From the NCBI RefSeq assembly GCF_900155425.1, contig NZ_LT700191.1, forward strand, positions 1,876,967-1,940,966: 64,000 nucleotides of DNA, in the 5' to 3' direction. Source of the stretch: Parabacteroides massiliensis (GTDB taxonomy: Bacteria; Bacteroidota; Bacteroidia; Bacteroidales; Tannerellaceae). Shown here one piece after another: positions 3,500 to 13,236 of the stretch; position 1 is the first letter of the stretch; the number at the start of each line of letters is the position of its first letter. The position numbers were made by a program, and so were the translations under genes. The notes below the pieces were generated by a model. It saw only the letters and a program-made list of their open reading frames with translations, had not been told where the DNA came from and made no database searches.

Positions 3500-3779
3500 A
3501 GTTGCGTTTCTCACCTTTCTTATTTTCCTCGGTTGAAACTAAAATGTCTGCGGTCGAAACAAAAATGCCTGCGGTCGAAACTAAAGTGTTCGCGGTCGAA
3601 ACAAAAGTTTCTGCGGTCGAAACAAAAGTTTCAACCGATGAAACAAAAGTTTCGTCCGAGGAAACTTTAGTTTCAAAGGAGGGAACTGTTTGAAACTTTA
3701 GTTTCACGAAAAATAGGTACTGAAACTTTTTACCGCTCAATGCTTTCCCGTCACAAATTGAAAATGGATCCATCCTCAA
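3486..3779 (-). CDS. Hypothetical 97-residue protein encoded across the 21-bp repeats
   Basis: Minus-strand frame whose middle is a degenerate heptad series of the type ETFVSTA, produced because the DNA repeat is 21 bp (seven codons). A GTG at 3707 could be a later start (VKLKFQTVPS). The opposite strand is also open (VETKVSA heptads, 3535-3693), which is expected for such a repeat, so openness is weak evidence of coding. Function unknown; may be only repeat DNA. Confidence 0.25.
   Translation of the reverse strand: MRMDPFSICDGKALSGKKFQYLFFVKLKFQTVPSFETKVSSDETFVSSVETFVSTAETFVSTANTLVSTAGIFVSTADILVSTEENKKGEKRNYANA
3529..3705. repeat. 21-bp tandem array of GAAAC-N4-GTTTC palindromes
   Basis: GAAAC recurs at exactly 21-bp spacing at 3535, 3556, 3577, 3598, 3619, 3640 and 3661. 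The best-conserved unit reads GAAACAAAAGTTTC followed by a 7-bp linker, usually TGCGGTC. The last units become GAAACTTTAGTTTC, a perfect small hairpin, which is repeated at 3692-3705. Units differ by several substitutions, so the array is not a recent expansion. Confidence 0.85.
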
Positions 3780-4078: not shown

Positions 4079-4294
4079 TGACTAAAAAAAACGTAGGTTT
4101 AAATTAGTCATTTCTTCGAAGCCCTGGATCGTTTTGTATCGGAAAGTAGGTTTTTCGTCCTTGTTTAGCTATCTGATTGATAAGAAAGAATATAGAAATG
4201 GAAAAATAATTTGATGAAAGGATTGCAGGTTTAAAAAGTAGTTGTATTTTTGTAGCTGAAAATGGCGAATAAAAACGTACGTTTTATCTCGTCA
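4079..4294 (+). promoter_or_regulatory. Invertible promoter cassette A, ON orientation
   Basis: Flanked by inverted repeats of the form TGAC-N5-AAAACGTASGTTT: left 4079-4100, right 4273-4294 (its complement), one mismatch in the 13-bp core. Inside is a promoter facing right: TTG 4223-4225, 19 bp, TATTTTTG 4245-4252, start near 4256, giving a leader of about 125 nt before the S-layer-type gene at 4383. The ~170-bp interior is about 94% identical to the interior of cassette B (10985-11199), but in opposite orientation. Phase-variable promoters flanked by inverted repeats are known for Bacteroides capsule loci and for Parabacteroides surface glycoproteins. Confidence 0.8.
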
Positions 4295-4382
4295 AAATAC
4301 AGGATTTTAGTAAAAACCTGTTAAGTAGAAAGTAAGAACGATATTCAATATACATATTATTATTAATTAAACATTTTAGATT

Positions 4383-7235
4383 ATGAACAAGAAGTTTTCT
4401 ACTCTCCTGATGGGTGGTTTGCTGATGGCAGGTGCAGTTTCTGCACAAACTCCGGCTTTGATTGAAAGAGGTTGGGGACAAGCTGAAACCGAACCCTCTG
4501 CTAAGTTTTATTACCAGATTGTAAACGGTAACGCAGGTACTGTTGGCTACGCTTTGCAAGCTGCTGTCCATACAAATGGTGCTGATAGCTTGAAAGCTGT
4601 TAGCGTTACTGCTTTGAATGATGCCTTGAATGGCCCTGATGTAGAAAAGGCCATCGAAGCTATGGCTACTTTAGACTCTACTTTGTGGGCTTTCGCTCCG
4701 AACGGAGATGAAAACCTGGGTTACTACTCAATTGTAAACAAAGCCACTGGTAAAAAATTACAGTTTGCAAAAGAAGGCAATGCTGTTATGGGGGCCGGTC
4801 TGAATGCTTGGTTTATCGAGGAATTCGGTTCTAATAAGGACGTTAAATTGAAAAGCTACGTTATCAATGCTGACGGAAGCAAAACAAGCTATTCTATTGA
4901 AAGCAATCGTACTGCTGGTGGTCCTGTAACAATAGCAAAAGGAAACGCTTCTGCCGGTTACAAGATCGTTCGTCCGGGACACATCTACATGAACGCAGCT
5001 CAGTTGAATGCTGAAGGTGATGGTAATTCTTTCAAAATGGCCATCGAAGATTTGGCCGATGCTGAAAATCCGTTTGTAAAGACAGCTTTGAAAGCTTATG
5101 ATTTGAGCGAACAAAACGGACAGAAGAATGTTGGCCTGAAAGTTGTTGACGGCAAGATCCTGAGAGCAGATGCCAACAAATATACAGGTGATGCTAAATA
5201 CAACACTAATGTATATGTTGTAGTTGATACTGCTATGTATACTTCTAAAGGTGGTGTAGACGTTAACGGTGTAGACGCTTTCGGTTTCAAATTTGCTGTT
5301 GACAGTGCAAAAGTAAACGCTGACGGCAAAATTGATGGTGCTGTACAGGCTCCGGGCCGTAACGTTGCAAACTATCGTTTTGCCATTTACAAAGACGTTA
5401 CTTTGGTTGGTGAAGACGATCAGTTGCTGATCAAGCTGCTGGGTGTTCCGACATACAATGAAGCTGCTCAAGGATCAAAATTCACTGGTGCTCCTAAGGT
5501 CTCTTATGTAAGTTGGGCTGGCTTCGCTGAAAAGGGTGATGAACTGACAACTGCAAGAATTTCTCGCGACAATTCAAAATATGTATATGAACTGCCGGTT
5601 ATCACTTTGGCTGCTGGTGCTAAGGCTGACATCGCTCCGGGTGTTTACTACATCAAGTATAAAGATGCTAAGTATGCTTATGCAAACATGAGTTTGTCAT
5701 CTTCTAACGGTTGGACTCCTTCTTATGCAGAAGCAACTCCGGCTGCAAATATGAACAACGACTTGTTGGCAAGAACACAGTATGTTGTTACAGGTGCTAA
5801 CGGTAAATATACGATTGTAAACCGTGAATCTGGTGAAACTAAGATCAGTGGCCGTATCTATGTAAAAGATGGCAAGTTCATTCAGGGTTCTAATACATTC
5901 GAATTGGAAGCCGTTCCTGCAGAAGTTGCAGCTGACAACCACGTAGGTTACAGATTCTTCTCTAATGAAGAAGTTGGTAATTTGGCTGTTGCCTTGAAGT
6001 TCAACTCGAAGATCGGTTCTGCTTTCATGGTTGACGCTAAAAAGAAAGTTTCAGTTGATGCAGAAACTCAATTAGAAGATGCTTCATTCTTCAAGATGTT
6101 GCCGGTATCTACAGTTAAGTTCGGTGTAGATATGGAATACGGTGTTTACAAACTGTACAAACAGTTTACAAAAGACTTCTTGGCTGCCGATGGTAGTGTA
6201 ACAGTAAACAACGGCCTTTCAAATGTAACATTGGATACTGAAGCCAATGCTGCTTTGGTTGTATTCCGTTCTACAGGAAAAGCCGGTGAATATCAGATTA
6301 TTTTTGCCGACAATGCTGAAAAACTGTATGATCAACTGAGTGTATTGGCAACAGAAGCTAAATTCAACAAACTTGCTGTTGACGATGCTAATGCGGCAGT
6401 TAACGGTTTCTGGACACTTGAAACTCCGGCTGCTCCTGACTATCTGACAATCGAAGATGCTCCGGCTCACAAACGTATCTTCTCTACAGAAAATACTTCT
6501 TTGGCCATCTCTATGCAAGCTAACAGAAACGGTATCTTGAAAGCAGTTGCAGACAAGGGTGACTATATCGAAGATCAGTTCAAGATCTGGGTAGACACTG
6601 CTTGTGTTGAAAACGCTGAAAAACCGTTGTATTACATCACAACTGGTGCTGGTTTGAGCGAAGAAGCTCGTGAAGAAGGCCACATGATGTACATGAAGCC
6701 GACTTCATTCACTACTGTAAACAATGTAGAAGTTGCAAAAGTAGAATTCGTTGAAGGTTATGCATTTGGTGCTGACTCTTTGGCTTACGCAATCTACAAA
6801 GATGATGCTACTGTCAAAGAATTCAAGGAATTCAAAGATATGGCTAAGAACGAGGCTGCATTCGCATTCCAGACTACTCCGGTAGAAGGCGAATATGTTG
6901 TAGAAAATGTTGCTACTCAGTCTTACCTGCGTCAGGTGAACGGTGTTCTGTATTTGACTAAAAAGTATGCAGACGCTCTGACATTCGGTATCGAAGCAAC
7001 AGACACTCCGACAGCTAACGAAACTATCGCAACATCTGAAGTTAAGGTTATCGCTGGCGAAGGTAACGTAACAATCGCTGGTGCTGCAGGCAAGAAAGTT
7101 GTTATCAGCAACATCTTGGGTCAGACTGTAGCCAACACAGTTATCTCTTCTGACAATGCAACAATCGCTGCTCCTGCAGGTGTAGTTGTTGTAGCTGTTG
7201 AAGGTGAAGCTGCTGTTAAAGCTATTGTTAAGTAA
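4383..7235 (+). CDS. S-layer-type surface protein, DUF6383-like C-terminus
   Basis: 950 residues. Signal peptide of 21 residues ending VSA before QTP. The body has no catalytic motif and is rich in Ala, Val, Asp and Lys, with low-complexity beta-type segments; Cys is almost absent. The last ~75 residues, beginning at PTANETI and ending AVKAIVK, match the terminal domain of the 1592-residue protein at 13270-18048 and resemble a cell-surface sorting/anchoring module (compare type A Por-secretion tails: conserved Gly-Lys-x-Val and GQT positions). Strong codon bias fits high expression. It follows cassette A, which is in the ON state. Role as an S-layer or surface glycoprotein is inferred from family type and context. 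Confidence 0.75.
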   Translation: MNKKFSTLLMGGLLMAGAVSAQTPALIERGWGQAETEPSAKFYYQIVNGNAGTVGYALQAAVHTNGADSLKAVSVTALNDALNGPDVEKAIEAMATLDSTLWAFAPNGDENLGYYSIVNKATGKKLQFAKEGNAVMGAGLNAWFIEEFGSNKDVKLKSYVINADGSKTSYSIESNRTAGGPVTIAKGNASAGYKIVRPGHIYMNAAQLNAEGDGNSFKMAIEDLADAENPFVKTALKAYDLSEQNGQKNVGLKVVDGKILRADANKYTGDAKYNTNVYVVVDTAMYTSKGGVDVNGVDAFGFKFAVDSAKVNADGKIDGAVQAPGRNVANYRFAIYKDVTLVGEDDQLLIKLLGVPTYNEAAQGSKFTGAPKVSYVSWAGFAEKGDELTTARISRDNSKYVYELPVITLAAGAKADIAPGVYYIKYKDAKYAYANMSLSSSNGWTPSYAEATPAANMNNDLLARTQYVVTGANGKYTIVNRESGETKISGRIYVKDGKFIQGSNTFELEAVPAEVAADNHVGYRFFSNEEVGNLAVALKFNSKIGSAFMVDAKKKVSVDAETQLEDASFFKMLPVSTVKFGVDMEYGVYKLYKQFTKDFLAADGSVTVNNGLSNVTLDTEANAALVVFRSTGKAGEYQIIFADNAEKLYDQLSVLATEAKFNKLAVDDANAAVNGFWTLETPAAPDYLTIEDAPAHKRIFSTENTSLAISMQANRNGILKAVADKGDYIEDQFKIWVDTACVENAEKPLYYITTGAGLSEEAREEGHMMYMKPTSFTTVNNVEVAKVEFVEGYAFGADSLAYAIYKDDATVKEFKEFKDMAKNEAAFAFQTTPVEGEYVVENVATQSYLRQVNGVLYLTKKYADALTFGIEATDTPTANETIATSEVKVIAGEGNVTIAGAAGKKVVISNILGQTVANTVISSDNATIAAPAGVVVVAVEGEAAVKAIVK

Positions 7236-7540
7236 TAAGAAACAATACTGTAGTAGTCAGGGGCGCAAGTCGCCCCTGCAACGCATTATTTTATAATCAA
7301 ATAATTCAAAACAACTTGCGTGAAACCGTATGAAGGGGAATTTCCTCTATTTATGATTTTAAGTACCCTGTGACAGGTGAACAAGCGGTTGGATTTAATA
7401 TTAATAATACTAAAGTAATGAAATTAAAAATTCTTCTGCATCTCCCTCTGTGAAGATAAGGTGCAGGCAAAAACAAGCCCCGGTAGTATTTGTACTGCCG
7501 GGGTTTCGTTGTTTTATATGTTGCCTTGTGAATTCCTTTA
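7236..7540 (+). other. 3' untranslated region conserved between the two S-layer-type genes
   Basis: This gap shares several blocks with 18049-18282: an ATAATCAAATAATTC block just after the stop, GGTGAACAAGCGGT, and an ATATTAATAATACTAAAGTA block, ending in similar hairpins. No gene is visible; an 11-codon frame inside is not conserved. The shared 3' UTR suggests duplication of whole transcription units and a role in mRNA stability. Confidence 0.6.
7478..7503 (+). terminator. Terminator of the first S-layer-type gene
   Basis: An 11-bp perfect stem CCCCGGTAGTA (7478-7488) with TACTGCCGGGG (7493-7503), loop TTTG, preceded by an A-rich tract and followed by T-rich sequence. Confidence 0.8.
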
Positions 7541-7556
7541 TCCCTATTTGTAGGTA
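7541..7556. promoter_or_regulatory. 16-bp dyad operator, copy 4 (pflB promoter)
   Basis: TCCCTATTTGTAGGTA differs from the perfect porin dyad at one position and has the same TTTG spacer. It is centred about 79 bp upstream of the predicted pflB transcript start. Confidence 0.6.
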
Positions 7557-7596
7557 TTTTTCTTCAGTTTAACATTCCTCTTCTTTTACAATGGTT

Positions 7597-7624
7597 TTTG
7601 GATAGAAGAAAAGACTTATCTTTG
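7597..7624 (+). promoter_or_regulatory. pflB: Promoter of pflBA
   Basis: TATCTTTG at 7617-7624 is a consensus -7 element; TTTG at 7597-7600 is a candidate -33 box with a short 16-bp spacing. Predicted start near 7628, leader about 30 nt. Confidence 0.55.
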
Positions 7625-7656
7625 CACGCCTAAACCGAATTAGACAAGATAAGCTT

Positions 7657-9897
7657 ATGATGTTTGAAAATGAGAACTGGAAGCAGTTCAAAGGTGAAAC
7701 CTGGAAAAAAGAGATCAATGTAAGAGATTTTATCCAGAACAATTACAAACCTTACGAAGGAGACGATGCTTTCCTCGTACCCTCTTCGGAGAAAACGAAG
7801 AAAGTGTGGAACAAACTGACCGAAATGTTTAAGGTGGAAAGGGAAAAAGGGGTATATGATGCCGAAACAAAACTTCCCCAAGGAATCGATACATACGGAC
7901 CCGGTTATATCGATAAGGAAAACGAGGTGATCGTCGGATTGCAGACAGACGCCCCGTTGAAACGCGGTATCTTCCCGAAAGGTGGTATCCGCATGGTCGA
8001 AAACAGCCTGGAAGCCTATGGCTATCATTTGGACCCGATGACAAAGGAAATCTTCACCAAATACAGAAAGACGCACAACGAAGGTGTTTTCTCTGCTTAT
8101 ACGGACGAGATGGTGGCTGCACGCCGTTCTGCCATCATCACGGGGCTGCCTGATGCCTACGGCCGCGGACGTATCATCGGTGACTACCGCCGTGTGCCTC
8201 TGTACGGTACCCGGATCCTGATCGAAGAAAAGAAACATTTCCAGAAACGTCTCGATATCCAGGAGTTGACGGAAGAAATCATCCGGAGCCGTGAGGAGAT
8301 AACGGAACAGATCAAGGCACTGAAAGCCTTCGAGAAAATGTGTGCCGGTTATGGTTTCGATGTGACTCGTCCGGCAAAAGATGCCCGCGAAGCCGTGCAG
8401 TTCCTGTATCTGGCTTACCTGGCTGCCGTAAAGGACCAGGATGGAGCGGCCATGTCTCTCGGACGTACTTCCACATTCCTCGATATTTACATTGAAAAGG
8501 ATCTCCGCGAAGGCAAGCTGACGGAAGAGGAAGCACAGGAGCTGATCGACCAGTTTATCATCAAACTGCGTATTGTCCGTTTCCTGCGTACACCGGAATA
8601 CAACGACCTGTTCTCCGGCGACCCTGTTTGGGTGACCGAATCGCTGGGCGGGCAAGGCGTCGACGGCCGCTCGTTGGTGACAAAGACTTCTTACCGCTAT
8701 CTGCATACCTTGTATAACCTCGGCCCGGCACCCGAACCCAATCTGACGGTGCTTTGGTTCAACAATGCTCCGGACAACTGGAAAAACTTCTGTGCGAAAG
8801 TTTCGATCGACACCTCTGCCATCCAGTACGAGAACGACGACCTGATGCGTCCGGACTATGGCGACGATTACGGCATCGCCTGCTGTGTGTCTCCGATGAA
8901 GATCGGCAAGCAGATGCAGTATTTCGGAGCTCGTGCCAACCTGGCCAAGTGTTTGTTGTATGCGATCAATGGCGGACGCGACGAGAAATCGGGTGTGCAG
9001 GTGGCTCCCCGCTTCGAACCGATCACCAGCGAGTATCTGGATTACAACGAAGTGATGGAGAAATACGAGCAGATGATGCGCTGGTTGGCAAAAGTCTATG
9101 TCAATGCGCTGAAGATCATCCACTACATGCACGATAAATATGCGTATGAGGCATTCGAAATGGGGCTTCATGACGGAGACGTGGAACGTATCCGCGCAAC
9201 CGGTATCGCCGGCCTTTCTATCGTTGCCGACTCGCTGGCTGCCATCCGTGACACGAAAGTGAAAGTGATCCGTGACGAACGCGGTTTGGCTGTCGACTTC
9301 GAACGCGAAGGCGAATATGTGCCTTTCGGAAACAATGACGACCGTACGGACAGTATTGCTGTCGACATTACCGAGAAGTTCATGGAATACCTGCGCCAGC
9401 ATCAGACATACCGCAATGCTACGCCGACACAATCCATTCTGACGATCACATCAAACGTGGTTTACGGAAAGAAAACCGGAACGACTCCCGACGGCCGTCC
9501 GGGTGGTACGCCGTTCGCTCCGGGAGCCAACCCGATGAACGGACGCGATACGAAAGGGGCTGTCGCCGCTTTGGCTTCTGTAGCCAAACTGCCTTTCCAG
9601 CATGCGCATGACGGTATTTCCTATACATTTGCCGTTTCACCCGCTACGTTGGGTAAGGAACGCGATATCCAGGTGAACAACTTGGTGAGCCTGTTGGACG
9701 GCTATTTCACGCCCGATGGTGGCCAACACCTGAATGTGAACGTGTTCGATAAAGAACTGTTGGTCGATGCGATGGAGCATCCGGAGAAATACCCGCAACT
9801 TACGATCCGTGTTTCGGGCTATGCCGTCAACTTCGTCAAGCTGACACGCGAACAACAGCTCGACGTCATCTCGCGCACCATCAACAGCAGTTTATAA
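7657..9897 (+). CDS. pflB: Formate C-acetyltransferase (pyruvate formate-lyase)
   Basis: 746 residues, normal family length. Converts pyruvate and CoA to acetyl-CoA and formate in the cytoplasm during anaerobic growth. The adjacent catalytic cysteines are seen in GIACCVSP (Cys409-Cys410) and the glycyl-radical motif RVSGYAVNF places the radical glycine at 721. Followed by its activase gene, so this is a complete pfl unit. The start could be either of two adjacent ATGs (7657 or 7660). The upstream dyad at 7541-7556 suggests control together with the porin operon and the two small RNAs. The gene pair sits between two phase-variable S-layer cassettes, unrelated in function. Confidence 0.97.
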
Positions 9898-9941
9898 TTG
9901 TCAATTCTCAATTGTCAATTGTTTAAAGTCCATTGATTAAT

Positions 9942-10664
9942 ATGTTGGGGCGCATTCATTCTTTAGAGAGTTTCGGGACCGTTGACGGTCCCGGAATTCG
10001 CTTTGTCATTTTTATGCAAGGTTGTCCGCTTCGTTGCCTCTATTGCCACAATCCGGATACTTGGGAGGTAAAGCGCGAGACGCCTTATCGGCTGGAACCC
10101 GAAGCGTTGCTTGCCGAAGTGCTGCGCTATAAGAATTTTATCGCTAAAGGCGGTGTTACCGTGACCGGTGGCGAACCTTTGCTGCAACCGGAATTCCTTA
10201 AAGAGTTTTTCCGCCTTTGCCGTGAGAACGGTATCCATACGGCGTTGGATACTTCCGGCTATATCTGCTCCGGCAAAGCATTGGAAGTTCTTGAATATGT
10301 CGATCTGGTCCTGTTGGACATCAAGACGATCGATGCCGGGCTTCATCCCCGCCTGACTGCTGTGAAGCTCGATAACACCTTGCGTTTTCTTGATGAGCTG
10401 GAGAAACGCGGCATTCCCGTGTGGATCCGCCATGTGGTTGTTCCCGGCCTGACGGATAATGATGAGGACCTGGAAAAATTGGCCGAATACATCAGCCGCT
10501 ATAAAGTGGTTCGGAAAGCCGAACTCCTGCCTTACCACACGATGGGAACCTACAAGTATGAGGCACAAGGCTTGGACTATAAGCTGAAAGGTGTGGAACC
10601 ACTTTCGGCAGAGCGCCTGGCCAATGCAAAAGCAATCTTCCGAAAACATGGGATAACCGTATAA
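9942..10664 (+). CDS. pflA: Pyruvate formate-lyase activating enzyme
   Basis: 240 residues from the ATG at 9942; a TTG three codons earlier is less likely. Radical SAM enzyme: CPLRCLYC gives Cys28, Cys32 and Cys35, the CxxxCxxC motif holding the 4Fe-4S cluster, followed by HNPDTW, typical of PFL activases. A glycine-rich TGGEPLLQ motif follows at about residue 80. It installs the glycyl radical on PflB. The gene is 44 bp downstream of pflB; the spacer holds short AT-rich direct repeats of the TCAATTGTCAATTG type that are common between Bacteroidales genes. A hairpin at 10736-10777 probably ends the transcript. Confidence 0.95.
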   Translation: MLGRIHSLESFGTVDGPGIRFVIFMQGCPLRCLYCHNPDTWEVKRETPYRLEPEALLAEVLRYKNFIAKGGVTVTGGEPLLQPEFLKEFFRLCRENGIHTALDTSGYICSGKALEVLEYVDLVLLDIKTIDAGLHPRLTAVKLDNTLRFLDELEKRGIPVWIRHVVVPGLTDNDEDLEKLAEYISRYKVVRKAELLPYHTMGTYKYEAQGLDYKLKGVEPLSAERLANAKAIFRKHGITV

Positions 10665-10735
10665 ACCGCATCGGATTCCTTTCATGATACTATTTGATTC
10701 TCAAAGAATATTCTTTTCTACCTTCCTGTAATTCC

Positions 10736-10782
10736 GGGGTTTTATGGATAGTTTTTCTTTTTGCTGCCTAAAACCCCTTTTG
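10736..10782 (+). terminator. Probable terminator of pflBA
   Basis: Stem GGGGTTTTA (10736-10744) with TAAAACCCC (10769-10777), 24-nt T-rich loop, then TTTT. The following 200 bp up to 10984 is AT-rich and shows no gene; a minus-strand frame there lacks protein character. Confidence 0.5.
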
Positions 10783-10984
10783 TCCCCTTTTTTTCTTCTT
10801 TTTTTCAAAAACAGTAATTTTTTACTTGTAGTATTACTTGAATAAAAACGTGCAAGTTCTTGTAACTTAGAAATATATTTCTTTGATGCAAAATAACGGA
10901 AAAGCCTGTTTCTGAGGGGTGAATTCGGCTCATTTCTTGTTTGTAAATTCTTGTGGATAAGAAAGATAGCGGAAGAAACCAAAA

Positions 10985-11199
10985 TGACTAAAAAAACGTA
11001 CATTTTTATTCGCCATTTTTCAGCTACAAAAATACAACTACTTTTTAAACCTGCAATCCTTTCATCAAATTATTTTCCCATTTCTATATTCTTTCTTATC
11101 AATCAGATAGCTAAACAGGGACGAAAAACCTGCTTTCCGATACAAAACGCTCCAAAGCATCGGAAAAATGACAAATTTAAACGTACGTTTTCATTGTCA
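10985..11199 (-). promoter_or_regulatory. Invertible promoter cassette B, OFF orientation
   Basis: Flanked by TGAC-N4-AAAACGTACATTT (10985-11005) and its near-complement AAACGTACGTTTT-N4-GTCA (11179-11199), one mismatch in the core. Inside, read on the minus strand, are TTG (11056-11054), 19 bp, then TATTTTTG (11034-11027). The promoter therefore points left, away from the S-layer-type operon at 11260. The interior is the near-identical reverse complement of cassette A. Flipping between the repeats would point the promoter at 11260-18048. An extra direct copy of ACGTACATTTTT lies at 11200-11211. Confidence 0.8.
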
Positions 11200-11259
11200 A
11201 CGTACATTTTTTAAGAGTTCATGAATAAGATGCGAATGTTGTAAGAAAAGAAATAGCAT

Positions 11260-13236
11260 ATGTTTGGACGTTTTACATCTTTATTGACTGTGGCTTCACT
11301 GGTTTGTTGGGGAATCGTGAGTCATGTTTCTGCGCAAATACCATCTTTGTCGGCCGACATCATGGCTTTGTACGGGTATCAGATGGACGGTCGTACCAGC
11401 CTCCCTCTCGGTACGAATGAAAACATATCTATATATAATGTATACGACGCTCCTGTCGATGGGTGTTATTTCGGTTTGAGCAATCCGAAAAACACCTATG
11501 ATCCGATGGGAATTGATTGCGAAGCCTGTTTGGAGGCCGGAGGGCGGTTGAAGATAAATGGTTCTTATGTATGGGGCTTGACAAGCACAAGCGATAAGAT
11601 ATATTGGGGGACGACAAACAATTTGCTTTGCCTTGCATTTGCCATTGTTGGCGAAGCGGCTACTACAGCCTATGAAACATCCGACTGGACGTGCGATTGT
11701 CCCGAAGGTTCGAGCAATGAAGCTTTGCCTCCGAGGGTTTATGTCTATGAACCCAATAGCGGGGTTGTTAAGGATTTGACGCCTGACGACGAGGCGGTCA
11801 AAGGCACGGCTTGCACAGGGCTTCGTTCTGCCGGAAGTTTGAATGATGTGGTCTTTTTAGGTGGGCCGGATACCAAGCATGGGTTGACGGTTTACGCTTA
11901 TTCTACCAAGGACGATACGTTCTTGGGGCTTAGCCATTTCGAAAATGTATCTAATATAGAAGGTTTTCAGGTGACGAATATCCGGAAATGGTTGGTTATC
12001 GATGGTGTGCTTTATTGTGGCGTACGCTATGTGCATGGCGAAAAATCAGGTGGTGCGATCCTTCGTTGGAGAGGAAATGCGGAAAATCCCTTCCAGTTTG
12101 AAGTGGTCGGCTATACTGCTGCAGAAGCGGCAGAATTGGCTTTCCATGACGGACGTATCTATGTAGGGGGATGGCCTGCAATGATTTTCCGCAGCCCGGA
12201 GCTTCCCGAAGGCGGGCTCACTGCCGATCATGCGGCAACTTGGGAAACTGTTTGGAGCATGTCCGACTACGAGATCGATCCTTTTGTCTTGAGACTGACG
12301 GGTATCGGCGGCTTTAAATCCTATAAAGGCCGTTTGTATTGGGGCTTCCTGCATATCCCTTGGGCTTATCTGTCTGTGCTTCCTGCTTATTACGGTCTTA
12401 CTTCGCAAGAAGATATATTGGCTGCGGTCTTGGGCGCTTGGCGTTCGTCTGCGCTTTTCTCGGCTTCTGACTTTTCGAGCAAAGATGATGTGGTGATGCT
12501 CTATGGCGAAGAGAAGTTGCCTCAGTTTGACCGGGCGAAGAAGAAGTGGGAGATCAAACCCAATGCTTCCGGCTACAAACCGAAATGGGGGCGTAGCGGT
12601 GCCGGTAACCTTTTCCTCAACTACATCTGGTCGATGGAAGTGTATAACGACAAATTATATATCGGAACGATGGATATGTCAGACCTGATAGAGCCGGCGT
12701 TGAATTCTTCGGAATTTTCTTTGGGTGGCATGAGTTCTTCATTGGTGCTGAATATGCTCAAAGTCGATAAGAAACAATATGGCTATGACTGCCTGGTGAT
12801 CGATGATCCGGAGAAGGAACCGTCTTTGGTGACGAATGATGGTTTTGGTAATCCGGCAGCCTACGGGATACGTAATATGTTGGTCCATGACGGGCAACTC
12901 TATATCGGGACGGCCAATCCGTTGAACCTGCATGAACAGGGCGGCTGGAGCCTTTTGACGTTGACTGAACGGTCAGCGCCTACAGCAAGTGCTAAACAAC
13001 CGGAAGTGGCGGATCTGCTCTATCGTCAGACCGATAGTTATGTGGAGATTTCTTCATTGAAAGGTGAGTCGATTGAATCGGTTACACTGGTCGATATGGC
13101 CGGTCGGATCCTCCGGAAAGAAAAAGGAGATTCTCCTACAGCAGTCTTGGTTACGGACGGATTGCCGGGCGGAGTTTATGTGGTTATGGTTCAGACGAAC
13201 GCTGTTACGAAAAGTTTCAAAATAAAAGTGAGATAA
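11260..13236 (+). CDS. Secreted beta-propeller-like protein with C-terminal sorting-type tail
   Basis: 658 residues. Signal peptide ending VSAQ near residue 25. At least six spaced segments of the pattern x-[KRVQ]-[IL]-Y-x-G (KIYWG, VLYCG, RIYVG, RLYWG, KLYIG, QLYIG) look like beta-propeller blades. The last ~70 residues (VEISSLKGESIESVTLV, then AGRIL, GGVYVV, KSFKIKVR) resemble a type A Por-secretion/T9SS sorting domain. First gene of a two-gene operon with the 1592-residue S-layer-type protein (33-bp gap) and downstream of cassette B, presently OFF. Likely a surface partner or accessory of that protein; the exact role is unknown. No enzyme motif recognised. Confidence 0.6.
   Translation: MFGRFTSLLTVASLVCWGIVSHVSAQIPSLSADIMALYGYQMDGRTSLPLGTNENISIYNVYDAPVDGCYFGLSNPKNTYDPMGIDCEACLEAGGRLKINGSYVWGLTSTSDKIYWGTTNNLLCLAFAIVGEAATTAYETSDWTCDCPEGSSNEALPPRVYVYEPNSGVVKDLTPDDEAVKGTACTGLRSAGSLNDVVFLGGPDTKHGLTVYAYSTKDDTFLGLSHFENVSNIEGFQVTNIRKWLVIDGVLYCGVRYVHGEKSGGAILRWRGNAENPFQFEVVGYTAAEAAELAFHDGRIYVGGWPAMIFRSPELPEGGLTADHAATWETVWSMSDYEIDPFVLRLTGIGGFKSYKGRLYWGFLHIPWAYLSVLPAYYGLTSQEDILAAVLGAWRSSALFSASDFSSKDDVVMLYGEEKLPQFDRAKKKWEIKPNASGYKPKWGRSGAGNLFLNYIWSMEVYNDKLYIGTMDMSDLIEPALNSSEFSLGGMSSSLVLNMLKVDKKQYGYDCLVIDDPEKEPSLVTNDGFGNPAAYGIRNMLVHDGQLYIGTANPLNLHEQGGWSLLTLTERSAPTASAKQPEVADLLYRQTDSYVEISSLKGESIESVTLVDMAGRILRKEKGDSPTAVLVTDGLPGGVYVVMVQTNAVTKSFKIKVR

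What the first reader, a model, noticed from the sequence alone, without database searches (positions are those of the whole stretch)
4079..11199. Two phase-variable S-layer promoter cassettes caught in opposite states
Cassettes 4079-4294 and 10985-11199 share an interior about 94% identical over ~170 bp but in opposite orientation relative to the downstream surface-protein genes. Each is bounded by inverted repeats TGAC-N4/5-AAAACGTACRTTT, with the same spacer length on both sides within a cassette (5 in A, 4 in B). The only promoter-like element faces the gene in A and away in B. This predicts that the 950-residue protein is expressed while the propeller/1592-residue operon is silent in this isolate. 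Promoter inversion is known for Bacteroides capsules and Parabacteroides surface glycoproteins; this specific pair and its recognition site are read from sequence.
Basis: partly seen in the sequence, partly recalled or inferred. Interest (0 to 1): 0.85.

Follow-up and report, generated by a model that had tools for sequence, protein, structure and literature searches.

The report
Flip-switch promoters for surface proteins
A Parabacteroides genome carries two nearly identical 215-base DNA cassettes in which the same predicted promoter points towards one predicted surface-protein gene and away from another; they are likely on/off switches flipped by a recombinase, a kind of switch already reported for a related species.

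Summary
Cassettes A (4079-4294) and B (10985-11199) share an identical 30-nt promoter-like element that faces gene 4383 in A and away from gene 11260 in B. The "inverted repeats" are halves of 31-32 bp near-palindromic sites around AAACGTACGTTT. Comparison supports inversion: at locus A the cassette is ON in two and OFF in two of four Parabacteroides species. A and B belong to a genome-wide set. Of 46 classifiable cassettes before DUF6383 surface-protein genes or operons in six species, 2 face the gene; A is one, the only one of five in this genome. Each of the six genomes also has one such gene with a close, gene-facing promoter and no recombination sites found (locked ON). In 57 of 57 site pairs from 12 species the two sites share the central dinucleotide (AT, TA or TT/AA) in inverted register, as a serine recombinase needs. 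An Mpi-family serine recombinase encoded elsewhere is the best candidate flipper. Promoter inversion of such genes is already reported for P. distasonis, so A and B are new members of a known kind. The matched dinucleotide classes and the locked copy may be new. Switching and expression are untested.

The parts
4079..4110 (.). cassette A, left recombination site TGAC-N6-AAACGTAGGTTT-N6-GTCA (32 bp, core one base off)
   Evidence: sequence; site scan
4223..4252 (+). promoter-like element of A, TTG-N19-TAnnTTTG, facing gene 4383 (ON as assembled); -7 box 4245-4252, ATG 131 nt downstream of its end
4263..4294 (.). cassette A, right recombination site TGGC-N6-AAACGTACGTTT-N6-GTCA (32 bp)
4383..7235 (+). 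950-aa predicted surface protein, C-terminal DUF6383 (PF19910, 112 bits, cut-off 23.7)
10985..11015 (.). cassette B, left recombination site (31 bp, core AAACGTACATTT)
11027..11056 (-). promoter-like element of B, identical to A's, facing away from gene 11260 (OFF as assembled)
11169..11199 (.). cassette B, right recombination site (31 bp, core AAACGTACGTTT)
11260..13236 (+). 658-aa predicted beta-propeller protein with T9SS type A sorting domain (TIGR04183, 26.2 bits, cut-off 23)
   Evidence: model pLDDT 88.8; propeller folds among the best PDB matches, at low TM-scores
13270..18048 (+). 1592-aa predicted surface protein, C-terminal DUF6383 (102 bits), second gene behind cassette B

Best explanation
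A and B are two copies of a promoter-like cassette, A's locus carrying it in both orientations in different Parabacteroides species, and each is likely flipped between two 31-32 bp near-palindromic sites by an Mpi-family serine recombinase encoded elsewhere in the genome. Shown by sequence: identical promoter-like element in opposite directions; paired sites; both orientations at orthologous locus A; central dinucleotides matched within all 57 site pairs found. Inferred: the recombinase would bind the TGAC...AAACG arms, cut at the central 2 bp (TA here) and invert the interior. The A state would drive the 950-aa protein, while the B state would leave the 658/1592-aa operon without this promoter. 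Because pairs with TA, AT and TT/AA centres would have incompatible 2-base overhangs, cassettes of different classes would not recombine with each other, whereas A and B (both TA) in principle could.
For: (1) Locus A (between a porin-like gene and pfl/pflA). Cassette interiors compared in gene orientation: G000-G014 147/176 identical as they stand, 92/195 reversed; G000-G012 88/198 as they stand, 138/179 reversed; G000-G001 94/188 as they stand, 124/178 reversed; G014-G012 149/175 only when reversed. BLAST agrees, with plus flanks around a minus interior for G012 and G001. (2) A related cassette before a polysaccharide-biosynthesis gene (PF02719) is reversed in G014: 121/161 and 119/161 reversed against 89/168 and 98/176 as it stands versus G000 and G012; G000 and G012 agree, 119/164. 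(3) 57 of 57 site pairs in 12 of 38 genus genomes match in central dinucleotide in inverted register: AT 25, TA 20, TT/AA 12; within-genome permutation expects 37.7 and gives P = 1.7e-9, or 2.7e-6 with five genomes picked by me to reduce relatedness. (4) The serine recombinase at G000:C4:12157-12777 scores 318 bits against the Mpi-family model NF009949 (cut-off 272), the only one of 7 tested to pass. The gene itself and orthologs of 93-98% identity occur in exactly the 5 genus genomes with the TA-type site; the next best is 80%. All 12 genomes with site pairs have an ortholog of at least 71% (Fisher P = 3.7e-5 at a 70% threshold chosen after seeing the data). The two other Mpi-like genes (194 and 169 bits, under the cut-off) have no close ortholog in G017, G020 and G025, which carry pairs. 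(5) The Mpi repeat of B. fragilis is given as ARACGTTCGTN in PMC8375218 (passage).
Against: No reads or expression data: switching within one strain is not shown. The comparison is between species, so rare inversions over evolutionary time would look the same. Directly next to the cassette the distal side is poorly conserved: the window's distal flank aligns only up to about 640-680 bp before the cassette. The recombinase assignment is correlative and confounded by phylogeny; 7 of the 19 genomes with an ortholog of 70% or more have no site pair, and tyrosine recombinases (26 matches in this genome) were not profiled. 23 of 38 genomes match the cassette DNA, more than the 12 with AAACGWWCGTTT pairs; the sites of the others were not examined. 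The most frequent centre in this clade is TA, not the TT of the quoted Mpi repeat. 44 of 46 cassettes are assembled OFF, so most may rarely switch under the conditions sampled.
Confidence: 0.8

Rival explanations
1. The cassettes are invertible promoters, but a tyrosine recombinase flips them, as reported for other Bacteroidales loci.
For: 26 tyrosine-recombinase matches in the genome. PMC8400631 links P. distasonis capsule loci to tyrosine recombinases (passage), and PMC12118408 describes B. thetaiotaomicron S-layer promoters with a different repeat, CCGTTACCTABVRAGTAAC, also found next to site-specific integrase genes (passage).
Against: The core AAACGTACGT is one base from the ARACGTTCGTN quoted for Mpi. 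The paired 2-bp centres fit the 2-base overhang of serine recombinases; tyrosine enzymes use 6-8 bp crossover regions (both recalled). An Mpi-family serine enzyme tracks the sites.
Confidence: 0.12
2. The cassettes are relics: a promoter block was copied in both orientations long ago and does not switch.
For: 44 of 46 cassettes are OFF (B) and some sites are degenerate (A left, B left; G012 3057814).
Against: Both orientations occur at the same locus in four species and at a second locus in three. Site centres stay matched in 57 of 57 pairs, which decay would break.
Confidence: 0.06
3. A and B differ because homologous recombination between the two 94% inverted copies flipped or converted the region.
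For: The copies form a 175-nt inverted pair 6.8 kb apart.
Against: At locus A only the interior is inverted between plus flanks, and pfl and pflA keep their orientation relative to gene A.
Confidence: 0.02

Closest known systems
Phase-variable glycoprotein family of Parabacteroides distasonis (Fletcher et al. 2007; paper not held, seen only in reference lists and as described in passages of PMC8400631, PMC2943079 and PMC4030854)
   Same: Genus; family of large surface proteins; control by DNA inversion. In genome G004 (its contig of 4,811,379 bp equals the length I recall for P. distasonis ATCC 8503) 9 of 9 classifiable DUF6383 cassettes face away and one DUF6383 gene has a gene-facing promoter and no sites found.
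   Different: G004 has none of the TGACN5-6AAACGTACGTTT sites; its site pairs have AT or TT/AA centres. I could not read the paper, so further overlap is unknown.
Mpi master DNA invertase and its invertible polysaccharide promoters, Bacteroides fragilis
   Same: Serine recombinase family (NF009949 cut-off passed by one gene here); a core one base from the quoted repeat; many scattered promoters (13 regions for Mpi, PMC4747536, passage).
   Different: Targets here are mainly DUF6383 surface-protein genes (a polysaccharide gene and others also carry the sites); centres TA and AT besides TT; outer TGAC/GTCA arms, which no passage I read describes.
BT1927 S-layer switch, B. thetaiotaomicron
   Same: Invertible promoter of an S-layer protein, inactive in most cells (PMC12578637, passage).
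   Different: A different repeat sequence, also found next to site-specific integrase genes (PMC12118408, passage); its protein was not compared with these.

Membership tests
Mpi-type invertible promoter | genome encodes a serine recombinase of the Mpi family | tested here: met
   C4:12157-12777, NF009949 318 bits vs cut-off 272
Mpi-type invertible promoter | inverted repeats matching ARACGTTCGTN | tested here: inconclusive
   A and B cores contain AAACGTACGT or a one-base variant of it; exact TT-type sites occur in relatives such as G012, G014 and G020
Mpi-type invertible promoter | promoter block found in both orientations between the repeats | tested here: met
   locus A and a polysaccharide locus, between species; not tested within one strain, nor for cassette B
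Mpi-type invertible promoter | the recombinase acts on these sites | not testable with these tools
   only phyletic correlation
Parabacteroides phase-variable glycoprotein family | C-terminal domain shared by the family (DUF6383, putative T9SS targeting) | tested here: met
   genes 4383 and 13270; the link to the P. distasonis family rests on G004 hits and a review passage
Parabacteroides phase-variable glycoprotein family | glycosylated, forms an S-layer | not testable with these tools
   no PDB sequence match, unusable model

The most novel reading that the evidence does not exclude
One master recombinase runs a whole surface-protein repertoire with a two-letter address code: each cassette's paired sites share a central dinucleotide (TA, AT or TT/AA) that keeps classes from recombining with each other. 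The repertoire is held almost entirely silent behind OFF cassettes, and one site-less copy stays permanently ON as the default coat, into which silent variants are exchanged over evolution.
Probability: 0.3. Interest if true: 0.68.

Novelty: new member of a known kind. Interest (0 to 1): 0.5.

Why it matters
It names a candidate recombinase and full recognition sites for a surface-protein repertoire, and turns a vague "phase variation" into tests. Does one gene deletion freeze every cassette? Do cassettes with different central dinucleotides ever recombine with each other? Is the locked copy the default coat? The 2-in-46 ON count also suggests that assembled genomes mostly show the silent state of this repertoire.

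Tried and rejected
AlphaFold model of the 950-aa protein: mean pLDDT 42.9 with 7 sequences, discarded. PDB sequence search for it: no match. Rfam on two loci with 400-nt leaders and two cassette loci: only hits below gathering scores. PADLOC on the three surface proteins: nothing. Site pattern in viral contigs: 8 stretches with one hit each, read as chance. Site pattern in genome contigs: 103 stretches; among the 80 listed rows those with two or more matches all belong to P. acidifaciens or Parabacteroides sp. RGIG9024; match counts of the other 23 were not shown, and records near the window's genome may be left out. Idea that the switch sits next to its recombinase gene: no exact AAACGWWCGTTT core within about 6.7-7.2 kb of any of the three Mpi-like genes. 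Idea that symmetric TA sites would often delete the promoter: among DUF6383 genes with full upstream sequence, none was seen with a TA-type site left alone without a promoter; two cassettes (G004 2996823, G012 3057814) show one core at 1 mismatch but keep the promoter, and G012's second site is visible but degenerate. Mutual exclusion ("one ON per genome") is not supported over simple OFF bias: 2 of 46 is too few. The positional counterpart of cassette B: only a weak flank match (68% over 250 nt, G014) and nothing in 19 kb of G012, so B's orientation could not be compared between species. The original P. distasonis paper could not be read, nor a related one, so which parts are already in print is uncertain; searches listed no held paper whose title, abstract start or read passages describe these sites or matched centres.
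Full report
What was checked. The window lies at G000:C3:1876967-1940966 of a 5.0-Mb, 23-contig assembly. So the genome is a Parabacteroides.

Anatomy. Their interiors align with 143 identities in 153 columns when one is reversed. The element TTGCAGGTTTAAAAAGTAGTTGTATTTTTG is identical in both and points right in A, left in B. It fits the -7 consensus TAnnTTTG quoted for Bacteroides (PMC4747536, passage). A's left core carries AAACGTAGGTTT, B's left core AAACGTACATTT. Gene 4383 (950 aa) and gene 13270 (1592 aa) end in DUF6383 above the Pfam cut-off. The gene between them behind B (11260, 658 aa) has a T9SS type A sorting domain above the NCBIfam cut-off and a confident model (pLDDT 88.8). Its best PDB matches are at low TM-scores and include a titled beta-propeller and several chains that I recall as propellers (sialidases, YncE, Cdc4).

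The genome-wide set. In this genome seven strong DUF6383 genes were found. Five promoter cassettes with paired sites stand before such genes or operons: A, B and those at C3:1832338, C3:879292 and C3:821055. A alone faces its gene. One more site pair stands upstream of a polysaccharide-biosynthesis gene (PF02719) at C1:498376, promoter-like element facing away.

Census. For all 79 DUF6383 genes with E below 1e-20 in six genomes (G000, G001, G004, G012, G014, G020), the upstream region was fetched as far as contigs allowed and classified (B's cassette, before gene 11260 of the operon). 46 have a promoter-like element with at least one site core (43 with both cores at up to one mismatch): G000 5, G001 11, G004 9, G012 8, G014 8, G020 5. 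Two face the gene (A here, and its positional ortholog in G014); 44 face away (binomial P = 1.5e-11 against one half). The other 33: 6 locked (one per genome, promoter 130-137 nt upstream towards the gene, no core found); 11 with another gene-facing promoter-like element about 410 nt upstream and no cores (9 in G020, 2 in G001); 6 in G001 cut off by contig ends; 6, one per genome, without any of these elements; 1 fragment in G012; 3 unresolved in G020. Assembled states reflect the majority of each culture or sample, G001 and G020 are fragmented, and the genomes are related, so the binomial value is only a guide. Exclusion and plain OFF bias cannot be told apart with two ON cases.

Evidence for inversion. 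At locus A, pfl is 96-98% and pflA 83-95% identical in the three relatives whose region was fetched, and a porin-like gene lies on the other side. In gene orientation, the cassette interior of the window is 147/176 identical to that of G014 as it stands (92/195 reversed), but 138/179 to G012 and 124/178 to G001 only when reversed (88/198 and 94/188 as they stand); G014 against G012 is 149/175 reversed. BLAST gives the same picture with plus flanks; for the window the distal flank aligns only up to about 640-680 bp before the cassette, the stretch between being diverged. The polysaccharide-gene cassette is reversed in G014 against G000 (121/161) and G012 (119/161), while G000 and G012 agree (119/164); a looser plus alignment at 69% also runs through the region for G012-G014. 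These are comparisons between species, not within one strain, and B could not be compared.

Matched centres. A pattern for two AAACGWWCGTTT cores 148-178 bases apart found 57 pairs in 12 of 38 genus genomes, with no hit for the reversed control. The pattern allowed any A/T centre at each site, yet all 57 pairs match in inverted register: AT 25, TA 20, TT/AA 12. Within-genome shuffling expects 37.7 matches; the chance of all matching is 1.7e-9, and 2.7e-6 with five genomes only (table typed). A itself is not among the 57 because its left core is one base off, nor is B; both have TA centres. This is what a serine recombinase with a 2-base overhang requires (family knowledge, recalled). It implies that TA, AT and TT/AA cassettes are insulated from each other; that implication is untested.

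Candidate recombinase. Eight resolvase-family matches were found; seven were tested (the long 636-aa one was not) and one passes the Mpi-family cut-off: 318 bits against 272, at C4:12157-12777. Besides this genome, orthologs of 93-98% identity occur in exactly the four other genus genomes that carry the TA-type site with the TGAC arm; the next is 80%. All 12 genomes with site pairs have an ortholog of at least 71%, and none of the 19 genomes below 70% (or without a match) has a pair; 7 genomes at 70% or more have none (Fisher 3.7e-5, threshold chosen afterwards, phylogeny not corrected). Two other Mpi-like genes have no close ortholog in G017, G020 and G025, which carry pairs; G020 and G025 are 90% and 81% complete, G017 99%. 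Tyrosine recombinases were not profiled. 23 of 38 genomes match the cassette DNA; sites of those without AAACGWWCGTTT pairs were not examined.

Locked copy and exchange. The locked gene lies beside the same neighbours (pyruvate kinase, and others) in G000, G001, G012, G014 and G020, but not in the 16 kb fetched of G004. Its protein is 86% identical between G000 and G014. In G012 the closest of the extracted proteins (77%) sits behind an OFF cassette, while the locked site of G012 holds a protein only 43% identical. So the same protein type occurs at locked and switchable positions; exchange is an inference.

Known background. Promoter inversion of a surface glycoprotein is reported for P. distasonis (described in PMC8400631; glycoproteins listed in PMC2943079; C-terminal likeness to T. 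forsythia S-layer proteins in PMC4030854; all passages only). The original paper was not held. The Mpi repeat ARACGTTCGTN comes from a passage of PMC8375218 and the count of 13 inverted regions from one of PMC4747536.

Verdict. A and B are real, very likely invertible promoter cassettes in opposite states, new members of a known kind. The wider pattern (matched centres, strong OFF bias, one locked copy) is the more interesting part and is testable.

Noticed in passing
window 3530-3676: Array of 21-bp repeats (unit about CGGTCGAAACAAAAGTTTCTG, TRF 5.9 copies) in the distal flank of cassette A; parts of this flank match other loci of this genome and of relatives.
   Followed up: partly
window 11198-11209: Partial extra core CAACGTACATTT directly after B's right site, perhaps a remnant of another site.
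   Followed up: no
L271 5976-6182 (G001:C64): Site pair with a promoter-like element between a TonB-plug/SusC-type gene and an Hsp70 (dnaK-type) gene, facing the Hsp70 gene as assembled; one site is degenerate.
   Followed up: partly
L330 (G020:C10) and 8 other G020 loci, 2 in G001: A second class of DUF6383 genes has a gene-facing promoter-like element about 410 nt upstream and no sites; in L330 the leader holds a terminator-like GCGGGC...GCCCGC-T run (by eye). Rfam gave nothing above gathering scores.
   Followed up: partly
L058 8803-12141 (G000:C3:1786302) and counterparts: Locked surface-protein gene whose neighbours are mostly over 90% identical between species while its own product is 38-86% identical, i.e. 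replaced or fast-evolving.
   Followed up: partly
G001 contigs C60, C80, C105, C118: Draft contigs end at or within about 36 bases of an AAACGTACGTTT-type core upstream of DUF6383 genes; the cassettes seem to break assembly.
   Followed up: no
window 40159-61591: Looks like a polysaccharide utilisation locus: TonB plug protein, SusD, alginate-lyase/beta-helix, PL8 lyase, heparinase-like and GH20 proteins.
   Followed up: no
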